This document shows, piece after piece, positions 21,487-64,000 of a DNA stretch of 64,000 bases. Source of the DNA: Candidatus Eisenbacteria bacterium (lineage in GTDB: Bacteria > Eisenbacteria > RBG-16-71-46 > CAIMUX01 > JAHJDP01); assembly GCA_018831195.1 (NCBI GenBank), contig JAHJDP010000100.1:1-64000 (forward strand), given 5' to 3'. The first letter of the stretch is position 1, and each line of letters starts with the position of its first letter. The notes under the pieces are model-generated. The model did no database searches, was not told where the DNA came from, and worked only from the letters and a program-made list of their open reading frames with translations. A program made the position numbers and the translations under genes.

Positions 21487-22113
21487 ATGATTACCCTTCG
21501 TACCTACATCTTTTTGGATTCTCTGCAGCCCCAACTCGCGGCCCAAATCGGGACCGTCTCCCGGGGTTTTTTACCGATCGCCGGGATGGCATCGCTGTAT
21601 GTTGAGATCGCGCCCGGGATCGCCATCAATCGCGTGATGGACATCGCCCTGAAAAAGACCCGTGTCCAGCCGGCCGTCCAGGTGGTGGAGCGGGCCTTCG
21701 GCGTACTCGAGCTTCATCACCAGGATCAGGGAGAAGTCCGCATGGCGGGGGAAGCCATCCTCAATGCTCTGGATCTCGAAGAGGCGGATCGGATGAAACC
21801 GCGGATGGTCTCAAGTCAGGTCATCCGGGCGATTGAGCCGTATCAGGCGCAACTCATCAACCGGACCCGCTATGGCTCGATGATCATTCCGGGGCAATCT
21901 CTCTATATCCTTGAAACGGAACCGGCCGCCTACTCCGTCTTTGCCGCCAATGAAGCGGAGAAAGCGGCGCGGATCACCTTGATCGATGCAAACCCGATCG
22001 GCGCCTTTGGAAGGGTCTATCTCGGGGGACCGGAGGCGCAAATCGATGCCGCCGCGGAAGCCGTGGAAAAGGCCTTATCTTCAATTTCGGGCAAAGAAAT
22101 TCCGGGTCGATAA
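21487..22113 (+). CDS. Tandem BMC-domain protein (microcompartment shell-like)
   Basis: Protein of 208 residues with two bacterial-microcompartment (BMC) domains, the build of a BMC-T pseudohexameric shell trimer. Each half shows a BMC-like strand followed by an alpha-helix and a second strand. The first is [20 protein letters not shown], then [13 protein letters not shown] and [11 protein letters not shown]. The second is [20 protein letters not shown], then [20 protein letters not shown]. Shell proteins form facets with a central pore that can pass metabolites. No other shell protein, encapsulated enzyme or vertex protein is near, so it is an orphan in this window. An AAGGTG ribosome site lies upstream. 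It is convergent with the PTS IIA gene. Confidence 0.8.
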
Positions 22114-23772: not shown

Positions 23773-25584
23773 ATGGACATGCCCGAGAGCCCACTTGATC
23801 TTGTCGTTCTCTCCGACCTCGCGCCGCATGCGATGAAACCGCATCCACCGCGTTTACGGCGGATGGATAAGGAGGAGCTCGCCGATTATTTCAAGGAACT
23901 CTCCCCCTCTTGTCCCGTCGCGGCCACATGGTCTCAAAGCCCCGGCCCCACGGTGGTTGTTCCTTTCGAAGATATTCGCGCCCTCAGACCCGAGGGGATC
24001 GCCCTAAAGAGCCCGGCGGCGGCTGAACTCATGCGCCTGCGGGGGCTCATCGACGGATTGAAGAAGGGCATCATCCCCCTCTCCATGGTGAAGGAGCAGT
24101 TGAAGGAACTGAAGGGACCGCAGGAACTGGTTCTGGCGGCGCAGGAAGCCCTATCAGGAGGGGCCGATCCCGATCCAGCGACGACACCCTCGCCGGGAGA
24201 TGACGCCCGGCAGGCGCCGCCCATGCCGGGTCTTCCCCGCCCTTCGGGTGATCCCCTCGAAAACCTCCTCAATATGGTGGACATAGACGCACCTCCCGCT
24301 GATCCCGAGAGTTCAGCGGCCTCACGGGGATTGGATCGCATCATCAGGGAGCTTATCGGCGTCGCCCGCTCCAGCGGCAATCCCTCTTCCAAAGTCATGG
24401 ACCGGCTTCTCTCAGATATCGATGACGCCATCGGATCGGTCCTGCGCGGGATCCTTCATTCATCCCCCTTTCAGGCTTTGGAATCGTCTTGGCTCGGACT
24501 TCGTTTTCTTGTGCGCCGGATCGACTTCCGATCCGGCGTCCGGCTGCACGTTGTTGCAACCCCGCGATCGGATCTGGAGTCGGCGCTGCAGAAGACCGTC
24601 TTCCCGTTCACCGACGGACAGAGAGAGGAAGGCCGGACACCGGTCGTGATCCTCGATTACGATTTCGGCGCCGACGATCTCCCCACATTGCGGAAGCTCA
24701 CGGAAATGGCGGCGGAGCGGCGCGTTCCGGTCATCACTTCCATGACACCGTCCATCCTCGGCATGCGCTCGATTGAAGAGATTCACGACTCGGCCGAGCC
24801 GACCGAAAATCTCCCGGAGCCCGAGTGGTCCCAATTCCGCGAGACCGATGATTCCCGCTGGTTGACCACGGCCATGAACCGCTTTCTTCTTCGCCTCCCC
24901 TATGGCCCGGAGGGTGACAGGGTGAAGGGCTTCACGTTTGAGGAGAACCCGCCGGAGGGGGATCCCGCCTATCTCTGGGGCCGCCCCGGATGGATCCTGG
25001 GTGTGCTTGTCGCCGGCAGTTTCGCAACAACGGGATGGGGAACGATGCTGACCGGACCGGGGGGGGCGGTTGTTGATGATCTTCCCGTTCACCTCACAAA
25101 ACGCCGGGCCGGCGATCTTATACAATGCCCGTTGGAAACTCTTCTTTCAGAGCAACAACTCCTGCTGCTGTCGCTTTCCGGCTTCACAACCCTGGCCACA
25201 GGGCGCCAATCGGATCAAATCTTCCTCATCACCGTCCCGACATTGTACAAATCCGATCATACCACCGCCTCAAAAGAGCGGCATAGGGACGCGCGGCAGG
25301 CGACACTTCCTTATCAACTCATGCTGGCTCAGATCACCGCGCTGGTGGACCATCTCTATCGTTGGATCGACCGCCGCAGCGCCGCGGAAGAGATCGGACG
25401 AACGCTCGCGAAGGGACTTCAATTCCTGATAGAGGGTCCCGGGGAACCCTTTGTCGAGATTTCATCAGGTGTTCTCAGAGACGACCCCGGCGGGAGCGAG
25501 TCCGTTGCCTTGAGAATCATACCGGTTGGCGGGCCCTTGAGAGGTCTTCCGGATATCTACATGGAGATGTCCATCACCCGGTAA
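23773..25584 (+). CDS. Contractile sheath protein, TssB-like and TssC-like parts fused
   Basis: Protein of 603 residues resembling the type VI secretion sheath. The N-terminal 120 residues follow the TssB (VipA) pattern: LDLVVLSDLAPH, a short PPRLRRMDKEELADYFKEL stretch, TVVVPFEDIRALRPEGIAL, then a paired helix (AAELMRLRGLIDGLKKG). A low-complexity Pro/Gly linker (about 125-175) leads to a TssC (VipB)-like domain from about 180: LDRIIRELIGVARSSGN, SPFQALESSWLGLRFLV, SDLESALQKTVFP, VVILDYDFGADDLP, YLWGRPGWILGVLVAGSF. In known systems TssB and TssC are separate chains, so a fusion is unusual. ATG at 23773 is chosen because GGAGG lies seven bases before it; an ATG two codons earlier is too close. 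It is followed by a paralogue. Confidence 0.75.
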   Translation: MDMPESPLDLVVLSDLAPHAMKPHPPRLRRMDKEELADYFKELSPSCPVAATWSQSPGPTVVVPFEDIRALRPEGIALKSPAAAELMRLRGLIDGLKKGIIPLSMVKEQLKELKGPQELVLAAQEALSGGADPDPATTPSPGDDARQAPPMPGLPRPSGDPLENLLNMVDIDAPPADPESSAASRGLDRIIRELIGVARSSGNPSSKVMDRLLSDIDDAIGSVLRGILHSSPFQALESSWLGLRFLVRRIDFRSGVRLHVVATPRSDLESALQKTVFPFTDGQREEGRTPVVILDYDFGADDLPTLRKLTEMAAERRVPVITSMTPSILGMRSIEEIHDSAEPTENLPEPEWSQFRETDDSRWLTTAMNRFLLRLPYGPEGDRVKGFTFEENPPEGDPAYLWGRPGWILGVLVAGSFATTGWGTMLTGPGGAVVDDLPVHLTKRRAGDLIQCPLETLLSEQQLLLLSLSGFTTLATGRQSDQIFLITVPTLYKSDHTTASKERHRDARQATLPYQLMLAQITALVDHLYRWIDRRSAAEEIGRTLAKGLQFLIEGPGEPFVEISSGVLRDDPGGSESVALRIIPVGGPLRGLPDIYMEMSITR

Positions 25585-25661
25585 GGTGACCGTTTCAGCC
25601 TTGTGAGGAAGCGGTTCAAGACCGGATCAGCGGGGCGCAGGCTTTAACAAGGAGCGACTTC

Positions 25662-27023
25662 ATGAAATGCCAGGCTTGGAGAATCCTTATTGTCGCCGAT
25701 CTCGGCGTTGCCTCTTCGAAGCCGATTGTCTGTGACACGGCGTATGACTGGATGAAGGCGCTGCGTCCGGAGATTGAAATAAAGCCGCCGAAGGGGAATC
25801 CCCGCACAGAACCGGTTCGATTGAATCCGACTGATCTTGAAATGTTAAAGCCGGATAATTTCATTAAAAATTTGGAGCCCGCAGGTCCCGTCGACGCCGC
25901 TCTTCTGGATGCTATACTTCACGACCCGGCCTTCCAGCGGCTGGAATCGGCTGTATGCGGTATCAGCACCCTCAAAACTTATTGTGAAGCCTCCTGTTCG
26001 GTTGAGATCGTTTCGACCCCCAGGAAGGATCTCGCCGAGAATTTCCGCTCCGCTGTCTTTGACTACATGATGCAGGACGCCTCAGCCGGCGATCCGTACA
26101 GTCTTATCCTTTTGGATTTTGACTTCACGCACCAAGCCGCAAGCCTTGCCGCCCTGCGGGATATCGCAAGAATGGCAAAGGTGATGCAGGCTCCGATCGT
26201 GGCCTCGGCGTCACCCGGATTTTTTGATTTCAGGTACATGGCGCATGTCTCCAAGCTGGGCGATCTGACATCGCGCTTGGTCGACTCGTCCCATCTCGGC
26301 TGGATTCAGTTCCAGGCGACGGATGAGGCGCGCTGGACGGCCCTGACCATCAATCGATACCTCCAGCGGGCGCCGTATCAAACGGAGAATTACACAGAGA
26401 CGGTCAAAGAGGCTGAGCCCGAGAGCTTTTTATGGGGACGGGGCATCTATCTGGTGGGATCTGCAGTCGCCCGTAGTGTTAAAGAGTACGGCCATGCCCT
26501 GGCTATCTCCGGCGGACAGGGGGGGATGTTTGCCGGGCTGCCGGTCCGGCCGTATCCCGTGGCGGCGAACGAGAGTGTTCCTCTGGCGGCGGAGACGGCC
26601 CTGGAAGAGATGAAGGTCCTGGAGCTCTACCGGGCCGGCTTCATACCGGTATGGGGCAAATTGCGGAGTGATACAGTCGCCCTGCCGATGATGGTGACCA
26701 CTTTCCGCATGAGGCCGGGAACATTAACATTAGAAGGGACCCTTCCGTACCAGCTCACAGCGGCGCGGCTGGCGCAATGCTGCATCCTGCTGCTGGATCA
26801 TCTCCCCGCCGGGGGACCTGAAGAGACGGCTGAGTTCATCCGCTTGGAATTGACAACGCTTCTCGGGGAGCTGGCCGGTGAGCAGCCCGATAAGGCGGTT
26901 CAGATCGAGGTACTGCAGGAGGAAGGCCAATCCCCGGCCGCTCATGTCATGATTCACCCAAAGGTAACGCTCGAGGGCAAGCCTCTGGAGTTTGAATTTA
27001 TGCTGCCGCTGAGGGGGTGTTGA
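25662..27023 (+). CDS. Second contractile-sheath (TssC-like) protein with short TssB-like N-terminus
   Basis: Diverged paralogue of the preceding sheath protein, 453 residues. A short N-terminal part keeps TssB-like strands (RILIVADLGVASSKP, then TEPVRLNPTDLEMLKPDNFI) without the paired helix and linker. The TssC-like core begins near 85 with VDAALLDAILHDPAFQRLES, a very typical TssC stretch. It continues with VEIVSTPRKDLAENFRSAVF, LILLDFDFTHQAASLAALRD, ESFLWGRGIYLVGSAVARSV and a late LPYQLTAARLAQCCILLLDH helix. It may form a hetero-sheath with its neighbour or act as a cap. AAGGAG lies seven bases before the ATG. It is 77 bases after the first sheath gene, and I see no terminator between them. 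Confidence 0.75.
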   Translation: MKCQAWRILIVADLGVASSKPIVCDTAYDWMKALRPEIEIKPPKGNPRTEPVRLNPTDLEMLKPDNFIKNLEPAGPVDAALLDAILHDPAFQRLESAVCGISTLKTYCEASCSVEIVSTPRKDLAENFRSAVFDYMMQDASAGDPYSLILLDFDFTHQAASLAALRDIARMAKVMQAPIVASASPGFFDFRYMAHVSKLGDLTSRLVDSSHLGWIQFQATDEARWTALTINRYLQRAPYQTENYTETVKEAEPESFLWGRGIYLVGSAVARSVKEYGHALAISGGQGGMFAGLPVRPYPVAANESVPLAAETALEEMKVLELYRAGFIPVWGKLRSDTVALPMMVTTFRMRPGTLTLEGTLPYQLTAARLAQCCILLLDHLPAGGPEETAEFIRLELTTLLGELAGEQPDKAVQIEVLQEEGQSPAAHVMIHPKVTLEGKPLEFEFMLPLRGC

Positions 27024-27101
27024 TCGATGGCCTCCGGGAGGCCTGCCGGAGATTCGCCGGAGAGATACCGGAGTGGCGCTGGAAAGGCGCGGGAGGTTCA
27101 C

Positions 27102-28067
27102 ATGATCACCATACTTATCGGCTCCATCGTTCTTTGTCTCCTCTTCGCGCCGTTCGCGCACGCGGAGGATCTTCCCGTTTTCGACAAGCTCTGGAACTAT
27201 GACAAACCGGATGAAACCGAGAAGGCGTTCCGAGAGATCCTGCCCCAGGCCGAAGCATCGGGAAACCTTGCTTATCTCCTGCAATTGAAAACACAGATCG
27301 CGCGAACACTCGGCCTTCAGCGGGAATTTTCACAAGCCCATGATCTCCTTGATGAGGTGGAGAAGGCTCTCACAACGGATCTCTCGGGTGACCGGGCGGG
27401 TGACCGGGCGGGTGACCTCTCCGTCGCCTGGATCCGTTATTTTCTTGAGCGGGGGCGTCTTCTCAATTCTTCGGGCAACCCCGAGGCCTCGCGCTCCTTC
27501 TTTCTGCAGGCCTGGGAGTTGGGGCGGAGGACTGGAAACGATTTCTATACCGTCGACGCCGCCCACATGATGGCGATCGTTTCGCCGTCCGAGCACCAAA
27601 TGACGTGGAATAAAAAGGCATTGGAGATCGCTGAAGCATCCGAAGATAAACGCGCGCGAGGATGGCTGGGATCGTTGTACAATAACATGGGATGGACCTA
27701 TAACGATCTCGGCGAATATGAGAAGGCTCTCGTGCTTTTTGAAAAGGCCTGGGAGTTTAGAAAAGACCAAGCGGATGCCGGCGGCGCGCGCATCGCGAAA
27801 TGGTGCGTCGCGCACGCACTGCGCAAAATGGGCCGGATCGATCGCGCGTTGGAGATGCAACGGGAGCTCGAAGAGGAGATCCTCGCGGAGGGCGCCGACC
27901 CTGATGGTTTTGTCTATGAAGAGATCGCGGAATGCCTCTATGAGACGGGCCGGCCCGAGGAAGCGGCGCCCTATTACCGAAAAGCCTATCAACTGCTCAA
28001 AGAAATCCACTGGGTGGCGCAAGGCGAGCCCGAACGCCTGGAGCGCCTCAAGCAACGCGGCGGCTGA
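27102..28067 (+). CDS. Exported TPR protein
   Basis: Periplasmic or secreted scaffold protein of 321 residues. It has a signal peptide (MITILIGSIVLCLLFAPFAHAE) followed by tetratricopeptide-type helix pairs: AYLLQLKTQIARTLGL, IRYFLERGRLLNSSGNPEAS, LGSLYNNMGWTYNDLGEYEK, IAKWCVAHALRKMGRIDRAL and YEEIAECLYETGRPEEAAP. TPR arrays bind partner proteins. The frame opens at 27027, but the ATG at 27102 has GGGAGG five bases before it and starts the signal peptide. It begins 78 bases after the second sheath gene and may be part of the same unit. A small in-frame 12-base repeat encodes GDRAGDRAGD near residue 100. It is convergent with pyruvate kinase. Confidence 0.8.
   Translation: MITILIGSIVLCLLFAPFAHAEDLPVFDKLWNYDKPDETEKAFREILPQAEASGNLAYLLQLKTQIARTLGLQREFSQAHDLLDEVEKALTTDLSGDRAGDRAGDLSVAWIRYFLERGRLLNSSGNPEASRSFFLQAWELGRRTGNDFYTVDAAHMMAIVSPSEHQMTWNKKALEIAEASEDKRARGWLGSLYNNMGWTYNDLGEYEKALVLFEKAWEFRKDQADAGGARIAKWCVAHALRKMGRIDRALEMQRELEEEILAEGADPDGFVYEEIAECLYETGRPEEAAPYYRKAYQLLKEIHWVAQGEPERLERLKQRGG
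27387..27416 (+). repeat. Short in-frame 12-base tandem repeat
   Basis: Unit GGTGACCGGGCG repeated about 2.5 times inside the TPR gene, in frame, encoding repeated GDRA. It is a likely site of slippage that would change length by four residues without breaking the frame. Confidence 0.7.
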
Positions 28068-59497: not shown

Positions 59498-60106
59498 CTA
59501 CCCAAGGTGGATTTTTTCGCCCTTGATCTTACAATCCGTATCCGCCTTCATGTAAATACGATGGCTTTTGAGCTGAGAACTCCCGGCGACAAGAGTGCGC
59601 ATCCGGCCGGCCTTCATCTGAATGAGACCCGAGACCCTCGTGCAGACTGTCTCCGACTTCTCGACAACCTCTCTTGCCAGCCGCTCCAGTCGTCCGACAA
59701 CAACGCGTGCCGTCTTTAATGACGCGGTAAAGGACCCTCCGGTGAAGGTCGTTTCTTCAATCTGATACCGGGCCAATTTTGCGTTGATAGCAACCTCTTC
59801 GCCCTCCAGGCTCACCACACCGCTGCTTCTTAGGCGGATATCGCCATGTTTGGCAACGAGTTCTAGGTCCCCTTGCTCCACCGTGAGGCGGCTCTTGCCG
59901 GTCGCCGGATCGTATTCAAAGATGAGATCCCCTCTTCTGTCGACAATTTGGAGTGTTTCGCCGTCGCCGGTGCCGGCGCGTCTCGCCATTGCGCCGTCCA
60001 AGGTCCTAAGTTCGACGTCCGGGCGGTTCCAATCCAGAGCTCGATCTGTGCTCTGACCTGATTTGTTTGCTTTGGTTCCTATATCATCCAACACGGGCAG
60101 CATCAT
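59498..60106 (-). CDS. DUF3540 domain protein
   Basis: Protein of the DUF3540 family, 202 residues, found next to DUF2169 and DUF4150 genes in type VI secretion regions; exact role unknown. The sequence has a VELRTLDGAMARRAGTGDGE strand region, GDLIFEYDPATGKSRLTVEQ, GDLELVAKHGDIRLRSSGVV, then a repeating beta-strand part (FTGGSFTASLKTARVVVGRL, GRMRTLVAGSSQLKSHRIYM, DCKIKGEKIHLG) that looks like the beta-helix of VgrG-type spikes. This suggests a spike-shaft or adaptor. GGGAGG precedes two adjacent ATGs, and the second (60103) has slightly better spacing. It is 13 bases before the DUF4150 gene, in the same operon. Confidence 0.82.
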   Translation of the reverse strand: MMLPVLDDIGTKANKSGQSTDRALDWNRPDVELRTLDGAMARRAGTGDGETLQIVDRRGDLIFEYDPATGKSRLTVEQGDLELVAKHGDIRLRSSGVVSLEGEEVAINAKLARYQIEETTFTGGSFTASLKTARVVVGRLERLAREVVEKSETVCTRVSGLIQMKAGRMRTLVAGSSQLKSHRIYMKADTDCKIKGEKIHLG

Positions 60107-60147
60107 GACCTCCCGGCCAAATTAGTACAACGGGTCCGAAGTCATCA

Positions 60148-61350
60148 TCACTTCGGCGCCTTCCAATCCTCGGCTTCCGCAAGATCCTTATCAGTAGATC
60201 TTGCATTCTTCTTATTCGCGCCTTTCCAAACAGCATTCTTATCATCGATCCGGTGCAAGACCGCCTGCGTCAGATCCGCATCCGTAAAGTCAGCGCCCTG
60301 CACATTCGCATGGGAGAACAAGGAGAACGGAATCGATGCCTTTCGGAAAACGGCTCTCGCGCAATCCGCCTTGCTCAACTCAACGCGATCCATGCGGGCA
60401 TTCGTGAAATTCGCACTTTTTAGATCCGCCTTCTCAAAACAGGAGCATCTGAGGTCGGCGCCGGTAAAGTCCGCGCTGCTGATGATGCACTCTGTGAAAT
60501 CCGCCGTCTTACAGGCGGCTTTCTGAAATTTCGCATTTGTGAGATCGGCCCCTGAAAATTTAACCTGCGAACACTCCGATTCACTGAGATTTACATTTCC
60601 CAAATTGGACTTCGCAAGATCAGAATCGGTGAATCGACATCTCTGAAGATCCAATCCTTCGAGATTGGCGGATTCAAGATTGCACAATTGGAAAATCGAT
60701 TCCTTAATGCTGGAGGAGGTCAGATCGGCGCTCTCCAAATCAACCTGCAAAAAAGTCGCCTTTTCGATTCTGGCGCCATCGAGCAGGCAACCGACCATCT
60801 CACATCCCTCAAGGTTTGTTTCTACAAACTTGGCTCGTGTGAGATCCGCTTTTGTAAGGATCGAGTTTTTCAAATTGGCTTGGTTGAGGTCGGCGCCCTG
60901 AAGATCCGCCCCTTCAAGATCGGTATCGATGATCTGCGTACCAGATAAATTTGCTGTCTTTAGATTGACATTCGCCAACGCCGCTCCCCTGAGAACCGCC
61001 CCGCTCAGATCGCAACCTTCCAAAGAAGAAGTTTCAAACTCCGTCCCATGAAGATTGGCCCCGCTGAGTATCGCTTCACTTAAATCTGAGCCCAAAAACC
61101 GCGCCTCTTCAAGGTTGGCCGCATCACATCGTGCGGCCGTCAAATTACAATCCCGGAAGATTGTATCCTTGAGGTTTGCGCCTGTAAGTTGCGCCCCTTG
61201 AAAATTGATTTTTTCAAAAGAGGCGTCAAAGAAATCGGCATTCTTGAGATCGGATTCGCTGAGATCCAGCGCCACCAGGCGAATGCCCTCAAGCGATTCT
61301 CCGGCGGCGATCTTTTCAAGAACCGCCTCTCTTGATTCAAGTGTATCCAT
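60148..61350 (-). CDS. Pentapeptide-repeat protein
   Basis: Protein of 400 residues, almost entirely pentapeptide repeats of the A(D/N)LXX type from about 28 to 385 (LDLSESDLKNADFFDASFEK, ANLEEARFLGSDLSEAILSG, ADLTRAKFVETNLEGCEMVG). This folds as a right-handed quadrilateral beta-helix. Cysteines recur inside the coil (CDLSGAVL, CNLESANLEG, CSQVKFSG). A short basic end (KGANKKNARSTDKDLAEAED) follows. There is no signal peptide or membrane helix. Pentapeptide proteins in this gene setting accompany DUF2169 proteins and may help load or dock effectors. DNA-mimic roles like MfpA are possible but not indicated. It starts four bases after the DUF2169 gene, in the same operon. Confidence 0.88.
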   Translation of the reverse strand: MDTLESREAVLEKIAAGESLEGIRLVALDLSESDLKNADFFDASFEKINFQGAQLTGANLKDTIFRDCNLTAARCDAANLEEARFLGSDLSEAILSGANLHGTEFETSSLEGCDLSGAVLRGAALANVNLKTANLSGTQIIDTDLEGADLQGADLNQANLKNSILTKADLTRAKFVETNLEGCEMVGCLLDGARIEKATFLQVDLESADLTSSSIKESIFQLCNLESANLEGLDLQRCRFTDSDLAKSNLGNVNLSESECSQVKFSGADLTNAKFQKAACKTADFTECIISSADFTGADLRCSCFEKADLKSANFTNARMDRVELSKADCARAVFRKASIPFSLFSHANVQGADFTDADLTQAVLHRIDDKNAVWKGANKKNARSTDKDLAEAEDWKAPK

Positions 61351-61354
61351 AGTC

Positions 61355-63472
61355 CTACCGTTTCAATTCCGCTAATTTGGTCATTTTCAGATTGGCGCCA
61401 TCCAATCGAATCCCTGAAAGAACGGCATCAAGTAACTCCACCTCATATAGATTCGAACCGGAAAAATCGGCTCTAGTAAGATCTGCCTTTTCGAGACTTC
61501 CTTGAAAGAGATTCGTCTTCTGCATCTTGGCTTCGCACAAAGAAGCCTTTATGAATCGAGAACCCTTCAAAACGGCCCCAAGGAAATTGGCGTTGGCCAA
61601 AGAGGCTTTCTCAAAAGTCGCTCTTTCCATCTGAGCGCCGGTGAAATCGGCCTGATTGAGGCAGGCTTCTTCCCATATCGATTCGAAGCCTTGAATGTTA
61701 ATAAAAAGTCCCTGCGTGAAATCACATTTTTCAGAGGCTCGAATTTTCGTCAGGTCCGCTTCACTCATATTAACGTCTCTTCCGGAAGCCCCTTCAACCG
61801 AGGCCTCCTTTAGATTCGACCCTTGAAATTCAGCTTCCGAAAGATCCGCACATGAGAAATCCGCCCCTTGAAAATCGCACTTCTGCATCTTTGCCCGCGC
61901 GAGATCCGCTTCGCAGAAAATGGTGTGAAGGGCGGTGGCGCCATTGAGAACCGCCTCCTGAAGCTTTGCCTGCTCAAAGATCGCGTCATTAAGGATGGCG
62001 CCGGATAAATTCGCTTTGGTAAGGTCGGCGTGCGTCAAGTCGGCATCCTTCAGAAGGGCGCCGGATAGATTGGCATTGGAGAGATCAGCGCCGGTAAGAT
62101 CGGCTTCCGTTAAGTCGGCCTCGGATAGATCGCAATTTCTAAGAATCGCATTGGCGAAAGCCACCTCGCGAAGATTCGCCTTCCGGAGAACGATGCCCGT
62201 CAGATCAATCCCGGTCAAATCCCTGCCGGACAATCCTTCCTCCTCCGCTGCTCTTTCTTTGACGATGATGGCCATAGGACTCACTGATGCGGGGGTGGAA
62301 CCGAGCTCGCCCCGAAGGCGCCCATCTTTTTCTTCCGCCGTTTCACCCGGCGGTTCTTCCATAATCGAATCGGTTTCATCCTCACGATCCATCTCCGAAA
62401 CCAAAGAGGGTTCAATTAAGAGGGATTGATAATGGCCGGCAGGCTTGCGCTCATCGGATAGATTCTCGGTGGCGATAATAATGTGCCGGATTTCCTCATA
62501 ATCGTCTGATTGGATCTCAGCGACACCCCGCCATACAAGAACGAGTTTCTCGGCTTCCATATCCACCCAAAGCGTGTCCAGGTTCATCGGGATCTCAGAA
62601 AACGCATCGCCGCCACCAACCGTTTGACTCTTCAGATTCAAGAATGTCCGGATTTTCAATCCCGGTAATTGTGATCGATATTGAGGAAACTCGGGGTGCA
62701 GGTTTTCAAAATAGAGTTTTTCATCTCCCCTGAGATATCCCTCTAACTGAAGCTCAGGCGGCGCGGCGTTAAAGTAGCTCCAGTCAAAATCCTTGGGAAA
62801 CCAGGGCCAGCGTTCTTTCAGCCAGTTCCCCTTGTATGTGCCGAGTTTGGAGGCTCTCAGCTCCCACATCCTGCCCAATGCGCCGAATCCCGCGGGATCG
62901 GGATGATGGCTCGGCGAACTGATGAGGTTCCGGGGATCTTCAATATTGGGCAGTTCCTTTACATTCTTTCCATTCTCCAATTTACGTTTGGAATTTCCCT
63001 TGCCCGTGGGATTGGCTTTGAATCCCTCTCCGCCGAAGCTGCTTTCGTATCGAAGCTCCATCTCGGTGAAAGGTTCAGGATCCGACATGCCACCAAGCGC
63101 GCCGAACGAGCCTCTCCAATGGCGGTTTCCAATGACGTTGAGTGAATGGCTTCTATCGCCTACTTGAAATGTGACGCGGCAGACGGTTTGGGGCCTTTTT
63201 CCGGATGTATGGCATTTGCCGGCCAGCAGAAGATCGGCCCGTGGCTTGAAGAAGGCGAAATCGGATTCATATCGGCATCCGCAAATACCCTCTTCATCAT
63301 CCGGGTAGGGCTCATCGCCGGTTGGGAAGGCTTGATCATCAGCCGGGACGGCCACGCCGCCATTTGTGATATCAAAGGTTCCTTTAACAATAAAGGTCAT
63401 GGAATAACCCGGAAAATTCATCCGTCCGACCAGAGGCGCGGCTTGAAAAGGTGTTTCATTGAGGATATTCAC
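61355..63472 (-). CDS. DUF2169 domain fused to pentapeptide repeats
   Basis: Protein of 705 residues. Residues 1-300 are a DUF2169 domain: ETPFQAAPLVGRMNFPGYSM, FIVKGTFDITNGG, then FGALGGMSDPEPFTEMELRY, GFGALGRMWELRASKLGTYK and FNAAPPELQLEGYLRGDEKL. DUF2169 proteins act as chaperones or adaptors that load effectors onto DUF4150 PAAR-like tips in type VI secretion. A charged linker (about 335-425, REDETDSIMEEPPGETAEE) leads to pentapeptide repeats to the end (ANLREVAFANAILRNCDLSE, ADLSNANLSGALLKDADLTH). GTG start with GAGGAG five bases upstream. The fusion mirrors the separate pentapeptide protein next door. Confidence 0.9.
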   Translation of the reverse strand: MNILNETPFQAAPLVGRMNFPGYSMTFIVKGTFDITNGGVAVPADDQAFPTGDEPYPDDEEGICGCRYESDFAFFKPRADLLLAGKCHTSGKRPQTVCRVTFQVGDRSHSLNVIGNRHWRGSFGALGGMSDPEPFTEMELRYESSFGGEGFKANPTGKGNSKRKLENGKNVKELPNIEDPRNLISSPSHHPDPAGFGALGRMWELRASKLGTYKGNWLKERWPWFPKDFDWSYFNAAPPELQLEGYLRGDEKLYFENLHPEFPQYRSQLPGLKIRTFLNLKSQTVGGGDAFSEIPMNLDTLWVDMEAEKLVLVWRGVAEIQSDDYEEIRHIIIATENLSDERKPAGHYQSLLIEPSLVSEMDREDETDSIMEEPPGETAEEKDGRLRGELGSTPASVSPMAIIVKERAAEEEGLSGRDLTGIDLTGIVLRKANLREVAFANAILRNCDLSEADLTEADLTGADLSNANLSGALLKDADLTHADLTKANLSGAILNDAIFEQAKLQEAVLNGATALHTIFCEADLARAKMQKCDFQGADFSCADLSEAEFQGSNLKEASVEGASGRDVNMSEADLTKIRASEKCDFTQGLFINIQGFESIWEEACLNQADFTGAQMERATFEKASLANANFLGAVLKGSRFIKASLCEAKMQKTNLFQGSLEKADLTRADFSGSNLYEVELLDAVLSGIRLDGANLKMTKLAELKR

Positions 63473-63934: not shown

Positions 63935-64000
63935 TTACTTCTTCGCCGTAATCGTAGATCCAAATTTAAAGGTGCTTCCGGTGAAATCAAAGGTGCTGCA
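63935..64000 (-). CDS. Partial gene, C-terminal end only
   Basis: A frame enters from the right edge and ends in TAA at 63935-63937. Its last 21 residues include STFDFTGSTFKFGSTITAKK, a strand-turn-strand pattern like the beta-helical ends of VgrG-type spike or related type VI proteins. It is 35 bases before the coiled-coil gene and in the same direction, so it is probably the upstream gene of the operon. Identity cannot be settled from so short an end. Confidence 0.45.
   Translation of the reverse strand, partial: CSTFDFTGSTFKFGSTITAKK

What the first reader, a model, noticed from the sequence alone, without database searches (positions are those of the whole stretch)
23773..27023. Tandem sheath genes with TssB-like and TssC-like parts in one chain
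In described type VI systems the sheath is built from two separate proteins, TssB and TssC. The first gene here joins both in 603 residues. The second keeps only a short TssB-like start before a full TssC-like core. Two different fused sheath subunits next to each other suggest a hetero-sheath, or a diverged contractile machine. No baseplate, ClpV-type ATPase, Hcp or TssJLM gene is in the window.
Basis: partly seen in the sequence, partly recalled or inferred. Interest (0 to 1): 0.75.

Follow-up and report, generated by a model that had tools for sequence, protein, structure and literature searches.

The report
Extra one-piece T6SS sheath-like proteins
Two neighbouring genes in a Candidatus Eisenbacteria genome encode one-piece, shortened relatives of the contractile sheath of the type VI secretion 'crossbow', which the same genome also carries in its normal two-piece form; they are intact, conserved accessory parts of unknown role, not a new machine and not debris.

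Summary
ORF 23773-25584 joins a TssB-like half, a linker and a full TssC-like half in one chain (here TssBCf). ORF 25662-27023 is a second TssC-like protein with only a stub of TssB (here TssC2). The interpretation mostly fails. The genome has a canonical T6SS: TssA,B,C,Hcp,E,F,G,H,VgrG start at the window's right edge on the same contig, and TssJ,K,L,M,TagF sit on another contig. TssB-TssC fusions are already described, as 'TssCL' of roseobacters (PMC9515649). The two genes are not decayed copies: the pair recurs in the same order in a second family, TssC2 occurs in six genomes, dN/dS is about 0.3, and all 12 genomes with a single-chain form also have canonical TssC. TssBCf and TssC2 both begin exactly where TssB's N-terminal inter-subunit arm ends, yet keep the TssC C-terminal region. 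Best reading: minority sheath subunits that dock into the canonical sheath through the C-terminal linker only. That role is inferred. A soluble regulator is the main rival. New variant of a known kind; interest about 0.5.

The parts
23773..25584 (+). TssBCf: single-chain TssB-TssC sheath paralogue, 603 aa (605 aa if ATG 23767 is used)
   Evidence: residue numbers in this report count from ATG 23767
23788..24078 (+). TssB-like half (residues 8-104), starting at the 'LPL' boundary after the TssB N-terminal arm; keeps the TssC-binding helix region
   Evidence: hhalign to TssB positions 64-166 of 203, 94.8%, E 5.6e-8; PDB profile hits start at chain residues 25-31
24256..24279 (+). linker motif LENLLNMV, at the place of the ClpV-binding N-terminal helix of TssC
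   Evidence: by position; LEALFRMV in G025, VDSILDMV in G276, IDSLLDMV in G287; helix role from PMC5048182; ClpV binding not tested
24400..25242 (+). TssC-like core (VipB, PF05943)
   Evidence: E 1.8e-49, residues 212-492; phmmer to M. xanthus TssC E 3e-44
25294..25581 (+). region of the TssC C-terminal gpW/gp25-like domain, diverged; no Pfam VipB_2 hit
   Evidence: profile of TssBCf aligns to solved TssC chains into the C-terminal region, column 571 of 615
25662..27023 (+). TssC2: 453-aa TssC-like protein with a TssB stub
   Evidence: PF05943 E 3.8e-41; A1 vs canonical TssC hhalign 99.9%, E 3.7e-34; AF2 model pLDDT 53, all six Foldseek hits below 1e-3 are T6SS TssC
25671..25868 (+). TssB-like stub (residues 4-69); the TssB helix, the TssC N-terminal helix and the linker are absent
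   Evidence: hhalign to TssB 64-144, 35%, E 4e-4: weak
59498..63472 (-). T6SS accessory genes inside the window: DUF3540, pentapeptide-repeat protein, DUF2169-pentapeptide protein
63935..64000 (-). 3' end of vgrG; the canonical T6SS continues outside the window to about contig position 77 kb (tssC at C100:73218-74702, tssB just upstream of it)

Best explanation
SHOWN: TssBCf and TssC2 are conserved single-chain paralogues of the T6SS sheath protomer, carried by genomes that also have a canonical TssB/TssC T6SS. Both lack the TssB N-terminal arm, the strand that links a subunit into its neighbour, and keep the TssC core and C-terminal region. TssBCf also keeps the TssB helix and a linker helix at the place of the ClpV-binding helix; TssC2 lacks both. 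INFERRED: they act as minority sheath subunits of that same T6SS. A subunit docks into the ring below with its C-terminal (TssC) linker only, so the pull that passes contraction from ring to ring through the TssB linker is interrupted there. That fits a special ring or cap at one sheath end, or occasional locking subunits. TssBCf could still be removed by ClpV; TssC2 probably not. About 0.85 that they are functional T6SS accessories, about 0.4 to 0.45 that they sit in the sheath this way.
For: Canonical T6SS in the same genome. Of 385 genomes searched, 22 have a TssC match; the 12 with any single-chain form all have canonical TssC too, 3e-17 by chance if independent, ignoring phylogeny. TssBCf-TssC2 order conserved in G025 from another family, 18 nt apart. 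All six Eisenbacteria with this canonical TssC clade carry TssC2. TssC2 G019/G021 dN 0.173, dS 0.56. Arm loss: hhalign and PDB-profile starts at TssB residue 25-31; the arm is residues 15-38 of P. aeruginosa TssB1, whose beta-1 is a handshake donor (PMC5807055). Lengthening this linker by 2 or more residues blocks contraction, and such subunits co-assemble with wild type (PMC5797969). Each subunit has two linkers to the ring nearer the baseplate; the VipA-N3 sheath holds to the previous ring by the VipB linker only; the distal-end composition is unclear (PMC5813253). An eCIS sheath is built from three paralogues, Afp2, Afp3 and Afp4 (PMC12961389).
Against: No structure, expression or interaction data. 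AF2 of TssBCf is poor (pLDDT 44.6). TssC2 and TssBCf evolve about 2-3 times faster at amino-acid sites than canonical TssC, as expected of a protein no longer held by a lattice. The genes lie about 32-50 kb from the tss genes here and on another contig from them in G025. In G287 the single-chain protein keeps the arm, so arm loss is not universal. Four of six genomes lack TssBCf, so the two are not obligate partners.
Confidence: 0.45

Rival explanations
1. Soluble regulator or decoy: the proteins bind T6SS parts (ClpV through the TssC-helix-like linker, TssB/TssC, or Hcp) and tune sheath assembly or recycling without being built into the sheath.
For: Fast evolution; loss of the lattice arm; similar [LIV][DE]x[LI][LF]xMV linker motif in four single-chain proteins at the ClpV-helix position; gene away from the tss operon.
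Against: The whole TssC core and C-terminal region are kept, more than a decoy needs; TssC2 lacks the ClpV-type helix altogether.
Confidence: 0.25
2. Effector-linked sheath variant: a single-chain subunit specialised for particular VgrG, DUF2169 or PAAR cargo, like the roseobacter fusion encoded next to vgrG.
For: Roseobacter fusion genes lie directly before vgrG, or one small gene away; in G276 the gene follows DUF2169 by about 40 nt; in G021 and G011 it lies near vgrG.
Against: In the window and in G025 no vgrG or recognised effector gene is adjacent.
Confidence: 0.13
3. Independent second contractile machine or obligate hetero-sheath of TssBCf plus TssC2.
For: Two different subunits side by side, same order in two families.
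Against: Only one TssK and one canonical TssB in the genome; TssC2 occurs without TssBCf in four genomes; both lack the arm.
Confidence: 0.07
4. Decaying duplicates of tssB/tssC with no function.
For: Lost arm and stub, faster evolution.
Against: Intact ORFs in two families (TssBCf) and six genomes (TssC2), dN/dS about 0.3, conserved order, deep split from canonical TssC (99/97 support).
Confidence: 0.05

Closest known systems
TssCL of roseobacter T6SS (PMC9515649)
   Same: TssB-like and TssC-like parts in one chain, next to a canonical tssB/tssC; VipB part about 30% identical to TssC
   Different: The roseobacter proteins examined here lack the TssC C-terminal domain, carry long acidic Leu-Asp repeats, and form a separate clade (98/92); described as restricted to Alphaproteobacteria, whereas relatives are found here in Eleftheria and in Eisenbacteria
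Canonical TssB (VipA) and TssC (VipB)
   Same: Same folds by profile; TssBCf has TssB then TssC, the usual gene order
   Different: One chain; TssB arm missing; diverged C-terminal region; outside the clade of all 17 canonical TssC sequences (98/98)
Single-chain sheath proteins of R-type pyocins and eCIS (Afp2, Afp3, Afp4)
   Same: One chain per protomer; eCIS sheaths use several paralogues (PMC12961389); R2 pyocin sheath lacks domain 3 (PMC5807055), as TssC2 appears to
   Different: Clearly T6SS-type by sequence; Foldseek best hits are all TssC

Membership tests
T6SS contractile sheath (TssB/TssC superfamily) | VipB/TssC core domain | tested here: met
   PF05943 E 1.8e-49 and 3.8e-41
T6SS contractile sheath (TssB/TssC superfamily) | TssB/VipA domain | tested here: met
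   TssBCf. For TssC2 only weak
T6SS contractile sheath (TssB/TssC superfamily) | TssB N-terminal handshake arm | tested here: not met
   Matches begin at TssB residue 25-31 and position 64 of 203; no upstream ATG/GTG/TTG in frame
Canonical TssC (equivalog TIGR03355) | Score above curated cut-off 271.5 bits | tested here: not met
   185.3 and 132.6 bits
Canonical TssC | Falls in the canonical TssC clade | tested here: not met
   Outside the 17-row canonical clade, 98/98
TssCL (roseobacter fusion) | TssB-TssC fusion alongside canonical tssB/tssC | tested here: met
TssCL (roseobacter fusion) | Same clade as the roseobacter proteins and ending after the VipB core | tested here: not met
   Separate clades; window proteins keep the C-terminal region
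Part of an assembled sheath | Polymerises or co-polymerises and contracts | not testable with these tools
   Needs microscopy or cryo-EM
Separate contractile injection system | Own baseplate, tube and spike genes nearby | tested here: not met
   None among the neighbouring genes scanned in the window; the only tss set belongs to the canonical T6SS

The most novel reading that the evidence does not exclude
TssBCf and TssC2 are dedicated end-ring proteins of the T6SS sheath, a cap or collar that attaches by the TssC linker alone and so stops contraction or growth. This would supply a defined protein for a sheath end and show that T6SS, like eCIS, uses several sheath paralogues.
Probability: 0.25. 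Interest if true: 0.75.

Novelty: new variant of a known kind. Interest (0 to 1): 0.5.

Why it matters
T6SS sheaths are treated as polymers of one TssB/TssC pair, and the protein make-up of the distal end was unresolved in the V. cholerae cryo-EM study. A conserved, separately evolving set of one-piece sheath subunits with a specific linker strand removed gives concrete candidates for special sheath positions or for control of contraction. It also shows that TssB-TssC fusions are not confined to roseobacters.

Tried and rejected
Separate contractile machine: rejected, single TssK and canonical TssB. Decayed copies: rejected by conservation and dN/dS. Plasmid tblastn with TssBCf looked like fusions in Vibrio and Rhizobium; in Vibrio sp. 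THAF64 the match runs across separate, same-frame tssB and tssC genes, and many Rhizobium rows carry both gene names, so none were counted. Long 1518-1609 aa ORFs beside TssC2 in G001/G020 look like start-choice and long-frame artefacts of high-GC DNA. Phage link: four weak phage-record hits, none convincing; viral contigs gave nothing. The TPR gene 27027-28067 is not conserved beside the pair in G025, so it was left out. The genome-contig scan found only three Eisenbacteria loci; its exact patterns miss known members, so absence elsewhere is not shown. AF2 of TssBCf was too poor to search.

Full report
1. What is there. On the + strand two intact ORFs lie in tandem, 23773-25584 and 25662-27023, each with a Shine-Dalgarno-like motif. 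The first, TssBCf here, has a VipB/TssC core (PF05943, E 1.8e-49) and a TssB/VipA-like N-terminus just below Pfam's cut-off (19.3 bits against 24). Three further tests make the TssB call firm: the G025 orthologue passes the cut-off (26.9 bits); residues 8-104 align with TssB in hhalign (94.8%, E 5.6e-8); a two-sequence profile finds solved TssC chains (E 8.5e-58) and solved TssB/VipA/IglA chains (E 2e-7 to 7e-6) with no other strong hits. The second, TssC2 here, has the VipB core (E 3.8e-41) after about 75 residues that resemble the first part of TssB only weakly (35%, E 4e-4). A modest AF2 model (pLDDT 53) still retrieves only T6SS TssC chains below E 1e-3.

2. The setting. The window is the left part of an 81.8-kb contig of a 5.24-Mb, 99% complete genome; relatives of the same phylum are named Candidatus Eisenbacteria. 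The window's last 4.5 kb hold DUF3540, pentapeptide and DUF2169 genes and the end of vgrG; just beyond lie ClpV/TssH, TssG, TssF, TssE, Hcp, TssC, TssB and TssA. Contig 87 carries genes for TagF, TssM, TssL, TssK and TssJ; TssK was confirmed by Pfam, the others I named by size, order and similarity to annotated proteins. Pfam finds three TssC-like genes and one canonical TssB in the whole genome.

3. Relatives. Among 47 genomes of the phylum, ten have TssC-like genes. Six with one canonical TssC clade (G000, G001, G019, G020, G021, G025) all have TssC2; G000 and G025, from different families, also have TssBCf, upstream of TssC2 in the same order. Genomes with the other canonical clade carry a different fusion that lacks the TssC C-terminal domain: G002, G011, and G022 cut by a contig end; none was seen in the incomplete G003. 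That short type is what plasmid T6SS clusters of roseobacters and of Eleftheria encode as 'contractile sheath large subunit' beside canonical tssB/tssC, and I take it to correspond to the published TssCL (PMC9515649). In a wider sample of 385 genomes, three from outside the phylum (G074, G276, G287) also have single-chain TssB-TssC proteins plus a canonical TssC. All 12 genomes with any single-chain form are among the 22 with a TssC match (one search gives 3e-17 for independence, ignoring shared ancestry). In the trees canonical TssC is one group (98/98), the short fusions another (98/92), and TssC2 a third (100/100) that groups with TssBCf (99/97; 96/91 with G276 and G074). Several long branches make finer order unsure.

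4. Anatomy that matters. In solved sheaths the TssB N-terminal strand and the TssC C-terminal strand are the linkers that tie each subunit to others (PMC5807055; PMC5813253). Lengthening the TssB linker by two or more residues gives non-contractile sheaths, and such subunits co-assemble with wild type (PMC5797969). TssBCf and all six TssC2 proteins begin where this arm ends, with no usable upstream start for TssBCf (a 37-codon open stretch upstream has no ATG, GTG or TTG and was not pursued). G276 and G074 also lack the arm by eye, while G287 keeps it. TssBCf keeps the region of the TssB helix needed to bind TssC (PMC3840085) and has a linker motif LENLLNMV, like IDSLLDMV and VDSILDMV in other phyla, at the place of the ClpV-binding TssC helix (PMC5048182). 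TssC2 has neither, so it resembles a sheath subunit without domain 3, as in R2 pyocin.

5. Function. Shown: conserved, intact, under purifying selection (TssC2 dN 0.173, dS 0.56 for G019/G021; canonical 0.082 and 0.43), and tied to T6SS by co-occurrence. Inferred: minority subunits in the canonical sheath that dock by the C-terminal linker only, at an end or as locking subunits. The soluble regulator/decoy is the chief rival, because the proteins evolve faster than TssC and the arm is gone.

6. Novelty. TssB-TssC fusions are known (TssCL) but were reported only from Alphaproteobacteria. The TssBCf/TssC2 pair, the second single-chain lineage, and occurrence in several other lineages appear undescribed in the papers searched. 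That library is partial.

Noticed in passing
window 21487-22113 +: A CcmP-like BMC shell protein gene (NCBIfam CcmP model E 1.3e-86, below cut-off); other BMC-domain genes lie on contig C28.
   Followed up: partly
L046 14345-17755, L047 14180-17797, L049 14492-17683: Roseobacter fusion proteins of 1063-1205 aa have a long acidic region with repeated LDDLL/LLGDL-type motifs and end in M-D-x-E-L-x-A-L-L; meaning unknown, possibly multivalent binding motifs.
   Followed up: partly
G000 contig C100 and contig C87: The T6SS is split over two loci: tube, sheath, baseplate and ClpV genes on C100; tssJ, tssK, tssL, tssM and tagF on C87.
   Followed up: yes
L070 10338-14127 -: In G276 the single-chain sheath gene directly follows DUF2169 and a 329-aa gene without Pfam hit, about 15 kb from the canonical T6SS.
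   Followed up: partly
L069 10176-12074 -: G287 carries a 633-aa TssB-TssC fusion that retains the TssB N-terminal arm, followed by a Ser/Thr kinase gene.
   Followed up: partly
window 27027-28067 +: TPR protein with a likely signal peptide directly after TssC2; not found next to the pair in G025.
   Followed up: no
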